DNA of 64,000 bases, taken from Arenimonas sp. (GTDB taxonomy: Bacteria > Pseudomonadota > Alphaproteobacteria > Rhizobiales > Rhizobiaceae). The stretch lies in assembly GCA_019459145.1 (NCBI GenBank), contig JAIBEK010000026.1, forward strand, positions 1 through 64,000. Reading direction: 5' to 3'. The notes below the pieces were generated by a model that did no database searches, had not been told where the DNA came from, and worked only from the letters and a program-made list of their open reading frames with translations. Made by a program: the position numbers and the translations under genes. Below, one piece after another: positions 12,420-14,839 of this stretch (the stretch's first letter is position 1; every line of letters begins with the position of its first letter).

Positions 12420-12439
12420 TTGACCTTGATCAGGGTCAA
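12420..12439 (+). promoter_or_regulatory. FNR/FixK-type box upstream of the octaheme cytochrome operon
   Basis: TTGACCTTGATCAGGGTCAA near-palindrome containing TTGAT-CAGG-GTCAA (12426-12439). A TATAAT lies at 12460-12465. Confidence 0.65.
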
Positions 12440-12459
12440 AGACCTGGGCGTGCGTCACG

Positions 12460-12465
12460 TATAAT
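12460..12465 (+). promoter_or_regulatory. Candidate -10 hexamer of the octaheme cytochrome promoter
   Basis: TATAAT, about 28-31 bp downstream of the box centre, 43 bp before the ATG. Confidence 0.5.
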
Positions 12466-12507
12466 ATTCAAATGGGAGAATGTATTCTATGGGAGGAGAA
12501 CCCAGCC

Positions 12508-14169
12508 ATGCAGGGAAGGCTTGCCCAAGCCATTGCACGCGTGACACTTGCCATTGTCTTTGCGGCCGGGCTGGCTCAGGCCGCAGCGGCACAGGAGACG
12601 ACCGCTCCCGCCATTCCGGGGACCGGCAGTACGGCCGACCATTCCAAGTTCGAGGTTCTCAAACGGGATTTTCGCTCCGGAGCCGAAGTGACCGATGCTT
12701 GCCTGACCTGCCACAACGAGGCGGATGATCAGGTCAAGCATTCCATCCACTTCAACTGGGACTATACCCATCCCGCCACCGGCCAGAAGCTGGGAAAACG
12801 CAACGTGATCAATTCGTTTTGCGGCTCGGTCGTGGGCAATGAACCACGCTGCACCTCCTGCCATGCCGGCTATGGCTGGAAGGATATGAGCCAGTCGCCG
12901 CAACAGCAGTCCGTCGCCGTCGACTGCCTCGTCTGCCATGACAAGTCCGGCCAGTACACCAAATCGGCGACCGGCGCTGGCGAGCCACCGCTGGACCCGG
13001 TTAAGCCCGGCACCCAGACGATCACCGGGGCCGAGGCCTGGCCTGTCGATCTCGGCAAGTCGGCACAATCCGTCGGCCTTCCCGGCCGTGAAAACTGCGG
13101 CAACTGTCATTTCTACGGCGGTGGCGGCGACAACGTGAAACACGGCGATCTCTCATCCGCCCTGGTCAAGCCGTCGCGTTCGGTCGATGTGCACATGTCT
13201 CCCGAAGGTGAGAACTTCACCTGTTCCACCTGCCATGTCAGCAACCGGCACGAATGGGCCGGCTCCCGCTATGCCGTTCACGCCAGCGATGACGCCGGTA
13301 CCGGAAAGCCGGGGGAACGGCGAGACGTCGCCACCTGCCAGAGCTGCCACGGCACCGAGCCGCACCAGAGCCTCAGCCTCAAGGGAATGAAGCTCAACGA
13401 TCACACCGACGTGCTGGCATGCCAGACCTGCCACATCCCGGAATTCGCCCGCGGCGGCGTGGCGACGAAGACGAAGTGGGACTGGTCGACCGCCGGCAAG
13501 CTGGATGCGGAAGGCAAGCCTTACAACGAGCACAACTTCACCCAGTCCGATGGCGCGCAACTGCACACCTACATGTCGATCAAGGGCGATTTCGAGTGGG
13601 GTGAGAATGTCGTGCCCCACTACGCCTGGTTCGACGGACAGGTCGAATACACCACGGGCGACCAGACGATCGACCCGAGCAAGGTCGTCGAGATCAACAA
13701 GATCTCCGGCGCTCGTGAGGACGGCCGGTCCCGCATCTGGCCGTTCAAGCGCATGGAGGGCCGCCAGGCCTACGATTCCAAGCAGAACAAGCTGGTCTAT
13801 ACCCACGTCTGGGGCCCCACGACGGACACCGCCTTCTGGTCCAACTACGATTGGGGCAAGGCGATCGAGGCCGGCATGAAGGCGGCCGGCATGGAATATT
13901 CGGGCTCGTTCGATTTCGCCGACACCCACATGTATTGGCCCATAACCCACATGGTCGCCCCCGCATCGGACGCACTCGATTGCCAGTCCTGCCATTCGGT
14001 CGACGGGCGCATGAAAAACCTCGCCGGAATCGTCGTGCCGGGCACCAATCCATTCGGCTGGGGCGGCATTCTTGGCCAGGCGGTACTGCTGGCGACCCTG
14101 TCGGGCGTCCTGCTGCATGGCATCTTGCGGATGATCGGCGGAAGAAAGAGGGAAGCAAACCATGGTTAG
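12508..14169 (+). CDS. Octaheme c-type cytochrome, tetrathionate reductase (OTR) family, with C-terminal TM anchor
   Basis: Sec signal peptide; eight CXXCH motifs (CLTCH, CTSCH, CLVCH, CGNCH, CSTCH, CQSCH, CQTCH, CQSCH); CGNCHFYGGGGDNVKHGDL; C-terminal hydrophobic segment GILGQAVLLATLSGVLLHGILRMI. RBS GGAGGAG upstream. Confidence 0.92.
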   Translation: MQGRLAQAIARVTLAIVFAAGLAQAAAAQETTAPAIPGTGSTADHSKFEVLKRDFRSGAEVTDACLTCHNEADDQVKHSIHFNWDYTHPATGQKLGKRNVINSFCGSVVGNEPRCTSCHAGYGWKDMSQSPQQQSVAVDCLVCHDKSGQYTKSATGAGEPPLDPVKPGTQTITGAEAWPVDLGKSAQSVGLPGRENCGNCHFYGGGGDNVKHGDLSSALVKPSRSVDVHMSPEGENFTCSTCHVSNRHEWAGSRYAVHASDDAGTGKPGERRDVATCQSCHGTEPHQSLSLKGMKLNDHTDVLACQTCHIPEFARGGVATKTKWDWSTAGKLDAEGKPYNEHNFTQSDGAQLHTYMSIKGDFEWGENVVPHYAWFDGQVEYTTGDQTIDPSKVVEINKISGAREDGRSRIWPFKRMEGRQAYDSKQNKLVYTHVWGPTTDTAFWSNYDWGKAIEAGMKAAGMEYSGSFDFADTHMYWPITHMVAPASDALDCQSCHSVDGRMKNLAGIVVPGTNPFGWGGILGQAVLLATLSGVLLHGILRMIGGRKREANHG

Positions 14170-14839
14170 GCGCATCGTCAAAGTCTATCCGCGCTTCGAG
14201 CGGCTATGGCACTGGTCGCAGGTCCTGCTCATCTTCACACTGCTGTTCACCGGTATGGGGATCAGCGGCATTCATTCGCTGCTGCCCTTCGGGCCGGCGG
14301 TCATCCTGCACACGATCGCAGCGATGGCGCTGCTCCTGCTCTGGCTCTTCGCCTTCTTCTGGCTTTTCACCACCGGCACCTGGAGACAATTCGTCCCAAG
14401 CTTCAATGGCGTGATCCAGATCCTCCGTTTCTACGCCTGGGGCGTCTTCAAGGGCGAGGAGCACCCCTATCGCAAGATCTACTGGCGCAAGCACAATCCC
14501 CTGCAAATCCTCACCTATTTCGGCCTGAAGGCGTTCATCTTCCCCGCCATCTGGATCACCGGCCTGCTTTATCTCTCCTATGATTTCTGGGACCATTACG
14601 TCGAAGCACCGCAATGGCTGGCACTCGTCGCCAATCTGCATCTGCTGACCGCCTACGTGATCGCCGCTTTCGTGGTGATCCATGTCTACCTGTTGACCGT
14701 GGGTCACGGTTTCGTTTCCCATGTCAAACCGATGCTCACCGGCTTCGATGAGATCGACCTGACACCTGAGCAGGAACGTTATCTCGAGACCAACGAACCG
14801 CAGCGCCTTAGGGACGAAAGGGCGTATTCGGAAACCTGA
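14162..14839 (+). CDS. Cytochrome b/b6 (formate dehydrogenase gamma / thiosulfate reductase cyt b-like) membrane subunit
   Basis: Several TM helices with His (RFERLWHWSQVLLIFTLLFTG; HLLTAYVIAAFVVIHVYLLTVGH); start overlaps the upstream stop by 8 bp. Confidence 0.85.
   Translation: MVRRIVKVYPRFERLWHWSQVLLIFTLLFTGMGISGIHSLLPFGPAVILHTIAAMALLLLWLFAFFWLFTTGTWRQFVPSFNGVIQILRFYAWGVFKGEEHPYRKIYWRKHNPLQILTYFGLKAFIFPAIWITGLLYLSYDFWDHYVEAPQWLALVANLHLLTAYVIAAFVVIHVYLLTVGHGFVSHVKPMLTGFDEIDLTPEQERYLETNEPQRLRDERAYSET

What the first reader, a model, noticed from the sequence alone, without database searches (positions are those of the whole stretch)
12420..14839. Membrane-anchored octaheme cytochrome c plus cytochrome b: a candidate quinone-linked N- or S-oxyanion redox module
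The ORF has a Sec signal, eight CXXCH motifs and the CGNCHFYGGGGDNVKHGDL stretch that I associate with the tetrathionate-reductase (OTR) family. Shewanella OTR is known as a soluble periplasmic octaheme enzyme with a Lys-ligated active-site heme that acts on tetrathionate, nitrite and hydroxylamine in vitro. Here the protein ends in a hydrophobic TM segment, and its stop overlaps the start of a diheme-type membrane cytochrome b. That suggests a translationally coupled, membrane-bound quinol:acceptor (or reverse) complex. It sits alone between lysC and ubiG with no other denitrification or sulfur genes nearby. The physiological substrate is unknown to me.
Basis: partly seen in the sequence, partly recalled or inferred. 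Interest (0 to 1): 0.82.

Follow-up and report, generated by a model that had tools for sequence, protein, structure and literature searches.

The report
Membrane-bound octaheme tetrathionate reductase module
A soil-type rhizobium carries a two-gene electron-transfer module, an eight-heme OTR-family cytochrome plus its membrane cytochrome b, inserted into its chromosome; the same pair is widespread, and comparative evidence suggests it lets bacteria pass respiratory electrons to sulfur compounds such as tetrathionate when oxygen is low and reactive sulfur is present.

Summary
The ORF (true start ATG 12508, 553 aa) is a genuine octaheme OTR (TIGR04315, 605 bits, cut-off 375). It has eight CXXCH, the Lys/Cys/Asp/Lys active-site residues, and a C-terminal membrane helix. 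Its stop overlaps a diheme b561-type cytochrome b by 8 nt.

New here:
(1) The pair is a conserved module: 109 of 113 loci, with cyt b directly downstream of every TM-tailed OTR in that set.
(2) The anchor helix carries an H-x3-R that is invariant in 108/108.
(3) The promoter has an FNR-type box and an ATTC-N8-GAAT operator, the published SqrR persulfide-repressor site; both recur in other OTR promoters.
(4) Hosts are enriched in SoxB and NosZ; this genome has a full sox operon.
(5) In three distant genomes the operon adds Sulf_transp (YeeE/YedE) genes; in two of these cyt b is fused to a heptaheme cytochrome.
(6) The module is an insertion, absent from the closest relative.

Best reading: a membrane-bound quinol:sulfur-oxyanion (tetrathionate) reductase. 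Nitrite or hydroxylamine remains possible. Activity is untested. The closest studied relative, Beggiatoa BOGUAY_2386, reduces both tetrathionate and nitrite in vitro.

The parts
12426..12439 (+). FNR/FixK/DNR-type box TTGAT-CAGG-GTCAA (inside the palindrome TTGACCTTGATCAGGGTCAA, 12420-12439)
   Evidence: 44 of 109 OTR promoters carry a high-scoring box at a similar distance, against 0.8% in shuffles; target sequence of FNR/FixK/DNR in alphaproteobacteria per PMC2908626
12460..12465 (+). TATAAT, presumed -10 element, placed so that the box centre is at about -40
   Evidence: sequence; inferred, no transcription start mapped
12466..12481 (+). ATTC-N8-GAAT, the SqrR-type (persulfide-responsive ArsR repressor) operator sequence, overlapping the presumed transcription start
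   Evidence: only exact copy in the 64-kb window; 22 of 110 OTR promoters have it at spacing 8, at most 2 at any other spacing; local background 0.0017 per 210 nt; consensus from PMC9774250
12492..12498 (+). ribosome-binding site GGAGGAG
   Evidence: sequence
12508..14169 (+). octaheme OTR-family cytochrome c, 553 aa
   Evidence: TIGR04315 605 bits, PF11783 229 bits; 1SP3 E=5e-105
12508..12591 (+). Sec signal peptide (about 28 residues)
   Evidence: sequence; helix 2-29 in the model; cleavage site not predicted by a dedicated tool
12796..12798 (+). Lys97 = Lys56 of Shewanella OTR, the reported heme-II ligand
   Evidence: invariant in 113/113; ligand assignment from PMC3769277
12820..12822 (+). 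Cys105 = Cys64 of 1SP3 (active-site pocket, from memory)
   Evidence: invariant 113/113
13129..13140 (+). Asp208 and Lys211 = Asp150 and Lys153 of 1SP3 (pocket, from memory)
   Evidence: 112/113 and 113/113
14059..14148 (+). C-terminal transmembrane anchor helix (residues 518-547)
   Evidence: Kyte-Doolittle maximum 1.88 over 19 residues; pLDDT 86-92 helix
14116..14130 (+). H537-x3-R541 in the anchor helix
   Evidence: invariant in 108/108 aligned TM tails
14162..14169 (+). 8-nt stop/start overlap of the two genes
   Evidence: the same overlap in most of the alphaproteobacterial loci
14162..14839 (+). b561-type diheme cytochrome b (PF01292), 225 aa, four invariant His
   Evidence: PF01292 79 bits; model pLDDT 89, closest folds FdnI 1kqf_C and hydrogenase-1 cyt b; His alignment
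12370..14937 (.). segment absent from the closest relative G1120 (left edge 12369/12370 sharp; right edge between 14840 and about 15056, blurred by repeats)

Best explanation
The two genes encode a membrane-bound quinol:sulfur-oxyanion oxidoreductase. The diheme cytochrome b oxidises ubiquinol in the membrane and hands electrons to the heme chain of the periplasmic octaheme OTR subunit, which is held at the membrane by its C-terminal H-x3-R helix. At the Lys-ligated heme II the electrons reduce tetrathionate (or a related polythionate or sulfane-sulfur compound), giving thiosulfate. Transcription is probably switched on at low oxygen through an FNR-family activator and derepressed by persulfide through an SqrR-type repressor. 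Shown by computation: family, active-site residues, anchor, conserved gene pairing, both promoter elements, insertion. Inferred: complex formation, direction of electron flow, regulator identity, substrate.
For: OTR family and active site. In the first survey, cyt b directly follows every OTR that has the TM tail (109 loci), and 3 Shewanella-type OTRs without a tail have no cyt b. Anchor H-x3-R 108/108. cyt b fold FdnI/HyaC-like with four ligand His. A heptaheme-cyt b fusion stands next to OTR in two gammaproteobacterial genomes. Sulfur link: ATTC-N8-GAAT in 22/110 OTR promoters at one spacing only, the SqrR consensus (PMC9774250). This genome encodes SqrR-type regulators, one with both Cys and a near-identical recognition helix. 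OTR-cyt b operons with Sulf_transp (YeeE/YedE) and rhodanese domains in a Bacteroidota plasmid and two gammaproteobacteria. SoxB in 34/35 OTR+ against 27/40 OTR- genomes, and 3/3 against 20/80 in Rhizobiaceae. Own complete sox operon. The family member BOGUAY_2386, with C-terminal helix and cyt b neighbour, reduces tetrathionate at up to 93 umol/min/mg, above its nitrite rate (PMC6449678).
Against: OTRs reduce nitrite and hydroxylamine as well. NosZ is enriched in OTR+ genomes (24/35 against 12/40), in the strictly matched family even more clearly than SoxB (10/13 against 12/40, p=0.004; SoxB 12/13 against 27/40, p=0.15). SqrR/SoxR-type repressors also govern nitrate respiration (PMC9774250, PMC12423496). 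In this genome the exact operator occurs 26 times, often inside genes, with none next to the sox genes seen here, and its gap to the FNR box is 26 nt, not 18-21. One TM-tailed OTR (L219) has no cyt b beside it. Most OTR loci have no sulfur gene nearby. Loci are related, so counts are not independent.
Confidence: 0.52

Rival explanations
1. The same membrane complex is a quinol-linked nitrite/hydroxylamine (or NO) reductase used to detoxify or respire nitrogen intermediates during denitrification; tetrathionate activity is a side reaction.
For: Shewanella OTR reduces nitrite and hydroxylamine (cited in PMC4484225). NosZ 24/35 in OTR+ against 12/40 in OTR- genomes, 10/13 against 12/40 in the matched family. 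This genome has NirK and NosZ. FNR/DNR-type boxes.
Against: No conserved nitrogen gene next to the module in the loci compared, whereas sulfur-transport genes are found in OTR operons. The second promoter element matches a persulfide-repressor site. BOGUAY_2386 was faster with tetrathionate (PMC6449678).
Confidence: 0.25
2. The complex runs in reverse as a thiosulfate (or sulfite/sulfane) dehydrogenase that feeds electrons to quinone.
For: Hosts are thiosulfate oxidisers; thiosulfate transporters in some operons; b561/FdnI-type cyt b partners usually reduce quinone (general knowledge).
Against: FNR-type box implies use at low oxygen; the tetrathionate/thiosulfate couple is thought to lie above ubiquinone (from memory), so reduction is downhill; known OTR activities are reductive.
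Confidence: 0.1
3. It is an electron conduit without own catalysis, like the OTR-related MmcA of Methanosarcina, passing electrons between quinone and another periplasmic partner.
For: MmcA (TIGR04314) is the next-best NCBIfam hit (35.9 bits) and has conduit function (PMC11024163).
Against: MmcA lacks the second heme motif and the Lys; here both are present and invariant; the TIGR04314 cut-off is 250 bits.
Confidence: 0.06

Closest known systems
BOGUAY_2386, OTR-family octaheme cytochrome of orange Guaymas Beggiatoaceae (PMC6449678)
   Same: Octaheme OTR family, predicted N- and C-terminal helices, a cytochrome b gene among the genes just downstream
   Different: There cyt b was assigned to a following thiosulfate/polysulfide reductase cluster, not to OTR; activities were measured on the recombinant cytochrome alone; no promoter analysis
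Shewanella oneidensis OTR (SO4144, PDB 1SP3)
   Same: Eight hemes, Lys-ligated heme II and pocket residues, alignment over 61-514 at E=5e-105
   Different: Soluble, no C-terminal helix; Shewanella-type loci have no cyt b beside the gene; accepts electrons from STC (PMC4484225)
PhsC / FdnI / HyaC b-type cytochromes (PF01292)
   Same: Four-helix diheme fold, four His ligands, partner of an anchored periplasmic redox subunit
   Different: Below the NCBIfam equivalog cut-offs (PhsC-type 81 of 204 bits; hydrogenase type 41 of 121.5); the partner is a multiheme cytochrome c, not an FeS protein

Membership tests
Octaheme OTR family (TIGR04315) | HMM score above curated cut-off over the full model | tested here: met
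   605.2 bits against 375, model positions 1-438 of 440
Octaheme OTR family (TIGR04315) | Eight CXXCH heme motifs | tested here: met
Octaheme OTR family (TIGR04315) | Conserved Lys ligand of heme II and pocket residues | tested here: met
   K56/C64/K153 equivalents in 113/113, D150 in 112/113; ligation itself not tested
[quoted passage not shown]
   needs purified protein
Shewanella-type soluble OTR | Soluble periplasmic protein without membrane anchor | tested here: not met
   C-terminal TM helix
b561-type diheme cytochrome b (PF01292) | Pfam gathering score and four heme-ligand His | tested here: met
   79.1 bits against 30.1; H17, H50, H160, H174 invariant and aligned with HyaC
PhsC thiosulfate reductase cyt b (NF011582) | Score above curated cut-off | tested here: not met
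   81.4 against 204 bits
MmcA methanogenesis heptaheme (TIGR04314) | Score above cut-off, no heme II motif | tested here: not met
   35.9 against 250 bits; heme II motif present
SqrR regulon | ATTC-N8-GAAT operator at the promoter | tested here: met
   12466-12481
SqrR regulon | Binding by and response to an SqrR-type repressor | not testable with these tools
   candidate regulators found, no binding data

The most novel reading that the evidence does not exclude
The OTR family is mainly a two-subunit membrane enzyme, a quinol:tetrathionate (polythionate) reductase made of an H-x3-R-anchored octaheme cytochrome and its own cyt b, switched on by low oxygen together with persulfide. The soluble Shewanella enzyme, on which the family's reputation rests, is the exceptional form. 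This would answer what OTR is for.
Probability: 0.42. Interest if true: 0.68.

Novelty: new variant of a known kind. Interest (0 to 1): 0.55.

Why it matters
[quoted passage not shown] If the common form is a membrane quinol-linked reductase under joint oxygen and persulfide control, its role in sulfur cycling at oxic/anoxic boundaries, including tetrathionate turnover by denitrifying thiosulfate oxidisers, becomes directly testable in tractable organisms such as Paracoccus. It would also mean that many genes annotated only as octaheme cytochromes can be read together with their cyt b partner.

Tried and rejected
(1) AlphaFold2 of the OTR subunit gave mean pLDDT 45; it was not used for fold search, homology to 1SP3 was used instead. 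(2) Conserved neighbours beyond cyt b: the other recurrent genes (FabF-like, L,D-transpeptidase-like, DUF882-like, named by eye) are shared Rhodobacterales synteny, not functional partners. (3) An NsrR (NO) site was considered for the inverted repeat at the -10; the spacing scan pointed to ATTC-N8-GAAT instead. (4) The sigma-70 consensus scan found no promoter, as can be expected for an activator-dependent one. (5) A copy of the operator was looked for in the sox locus L136 and not found. (6) Taking the operator as a genome-wide regulon marker in this genome: 26 sites, mostly in coding sequence or beside unrelated genes. (7) My first statement that tail-less OTRs have no cyt b was corrected: one (L029/L224) has cyt b as part of a downstream heptaheme fusion. 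(8) Rfam: no RNA family in 11-17 kb.

Full report
WHAT IS THERE. The window belongs to a 4.55-Mb rhizobial genome. A housekeeping neighbour, PtsP, is 95-100% identical to proteins named Rhizobium, Allorhizobium and Peteryoungia. The ORF at 12472..14169 contains eight CXXCH motifs. A better start is ATG 12508, behind GGAGGAG, giving 553 aa, the same length as the 99% identical database protein. It matches TIGR04315 (octaheme tetrathionate-reductase family) with 605 bits against a cut-off of 375 and PF11783 with 229 bits. Its only PDB match is 1SP3, Shewanella OTR, E = 5e-105. The next gene, 14162..14839, is a PF01292 cytochrome b. The stop and start overlap by 8 nt (ATGGTTAG).

ACTIVE SITE. In an alignment of 113 sequences including 1SP3 all eight CXXCH are present. 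The residue equivalent to Lys56 is invariant; PMC3769277 names it the ligand of heme II. Cys64 and Lys153 are invariant and Asp150 is 112/113; I recall them as pocket residues, which I could not check in an open paper. PMC11024163 states that OTRs have the second heme with its conserved Lys, and that the related conduit MmcA lacks both.

THE PAIR IS A MODULE. In 113 OTR loci from Pseudomonadota (window copy counted twice), 109 OTRs have a hydrophobic C-terminal tail and every one of these has a cyt b gene directly downstream, most often with the same 8-nt overlap. Four have no tail; three of them are of Shewanella type with no cyt b in 15 kb. The fourth is followed by a heptaheme cytochrome fused to a cyt b domain. 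Wider sampling gave one exception, L219, with tail but no cyt b. Within the tail, which otherwise varies, His537 and Arg541 are invariant in 108 of 108. The cyt b model is good (pLDDT 89). Its nearest folds are FdnI of formate dehydrogenase-N and the cyt b of hydrogenase-1 (Foldseek E-values only 0.006-0.023, but probability 1.00). Its four invariant His align with the hydrogenase cyt b His.

PROMOTER. At 12426-12439 lies TTGATCAGGGTCAA, an FNR/FixK/DNR-type box. A scored search finds such boxes in 44 of 109 OTR promoters at similar positions, against 0.8% in shuffles. A TATAAT follows at 12460. Overlapping the presumed start is ATTC-AAATGGGA-GAAT (12466-12481). ATTC-N8-GAAT is given as the recognition site of SqrR, the persulfide-responsive repressor of Rhodobacter capsulatus (PMC9774250). 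It occurs in 22 of 110 OTR promoters with spacing 8 and in at most 2 with any other spacing from 0 to 15. Only 35 copies exist in all 1.65 Mb of loci, so 22 of them sit in these promoters. In 45 promoters that have the FNR-type box, 17 have the exact operator 18-26 nt downstream, none in 4,500 shuffles. The eight middle bases differ between genera, as expected for an operator under selection. The genome encodes an ArsR regulator beside sox whose best PDB match is the ArsR regulator 13ct/6o8l (SqrR, as I recall), and a second one (C19) with both Cys positions and the QQAVVSQQLARLRLE helix (the SqrR row carries a few leading residues of my own that are not from a record, the aligned part is). 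Caveat: in this genome the exact operator occurs 26 times (6 for the reversed control), and I found no sulfur gene next to the others.

SULFUR OR NITROGEN. This genome has soxX, Y, A, B, C (all over their cut-offs) and a soxD-like gene in one operon, and also NirK and NosZ. SoxB is in 34 of 35 OTR+ genomes and 27 of 40 OTR- genomes (p = 0.0009). NosZ is in 24/35 against 12/40 (p = 0.001; NosZ counted as a full-length match, since the model is of the other NosZ clade and most matches lie below its cut-off). Restricted to one matched family, NosZ stays significant (10/13 against 12/40, p = 0.004) and SoxB does not (12/13 against 27/40, p = 0.15). In Rhizobiaceae, where OTR is rare (3 of 200), all three OTR+ genomes have SoxB against 20 of 80 others (p = 0.02). 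Co-occurrence alone therefore does not decide. Gene context does lean to sulfur: a Bacteroidota plasmid has OTR, cyt b and two Sulf_transp (YeeE/YedE) genes, the second fused to rhodanese, in a row. Two gammaproteobacterial genomes have OTR, heptaheme-cyt b fusion and two such genes. Lucinid symbionts have otr next to soxY and soxZ (PMC11237559). The only tested protein of the anchored type that I found, BOGUAY_2386, reduced tetrathionate faster than nitrite (PMC6449678).

ORIGIN. The OTR tree places the window with Lutimaribacter and other Rhodobacterales (support 84), apart from the two other Rhizobiaceae OTRs. The nearest genome, G1120 (lysC 94% identical), has lysC and the following SH3-like gene but not the segment 12370 to about 14.94 kb. 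The module thus most likely came by horizontal transfer with its promoter. It is also found on large Paracoccus plasmids.

MECHANISM AND LIMITS. The best-supported mechanism is quinol oxidation by cyt b, electron transfer through the octaheme chain, and reduction of tetrathionate at the Lys-ligated heme. Shown: sequence family, residues, anchor, pairing, promoter elements, insertion. Inferred: the complex, direction, regulators, substrate. The loci are related, so counts overstate independence. Papers outside the open library could already describe the pair; in 9 searches of the open library I found none that treats it as a complex.

Noticed in passing
L224 (G806) 2952-6997 and L212 (G809) 7365-11018: Heptaheme cytochrome fused to a b561-type cyt b, in an operon with a tail-less octaheme OTR and two Sulf_transp genes, one with rhodanese; a distinct variant of the module.
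   Followed up: partly
L191 (Fulvitalea axinellae plasmid pFA1) 3848-7811: Four-gene operon OTR, cyt b, YeeE/YedE, YeeE/YedE-rhodanese in a Bacteroidota, showing the module outside Pseudomonadota.
   Followed up: partly
L129, L134, L135 (G950): One Rhodobacteraceae-type genome holds three OTR paralogues, one of them much weaker (380 bits).
   Followed up: no
L219 6858-8477 (reversed locus): OTR with the TM tail and H-x3-R but no cyt b next to it; the genome has other OTR copies.
   Followed up: no
window 14988-15788 (-): SH3-like secreted protein with RRPPTRDPDV tandem repeats whose number differs between relatives.
   Followed up: no
L189 (Paracoccus ferrooxidans pFER4) 5542-6517: The cyt b region is unannotated and tblastn splits it in two pieces, perhaps a frameshift in that record.
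   Followed up: no
L222, L223, L225: Shewanella-type soluble OTR is preceded by a monoheme cytochrome and a protein of about 570 aa (split in L223), a different context from the membrane form.
   Followed up: no
G000 C2:161488-161503 (L176): An intergenic ATTC-N8-GAAT site about 5 kb from nosZ in the same genome.
   Followed up: no
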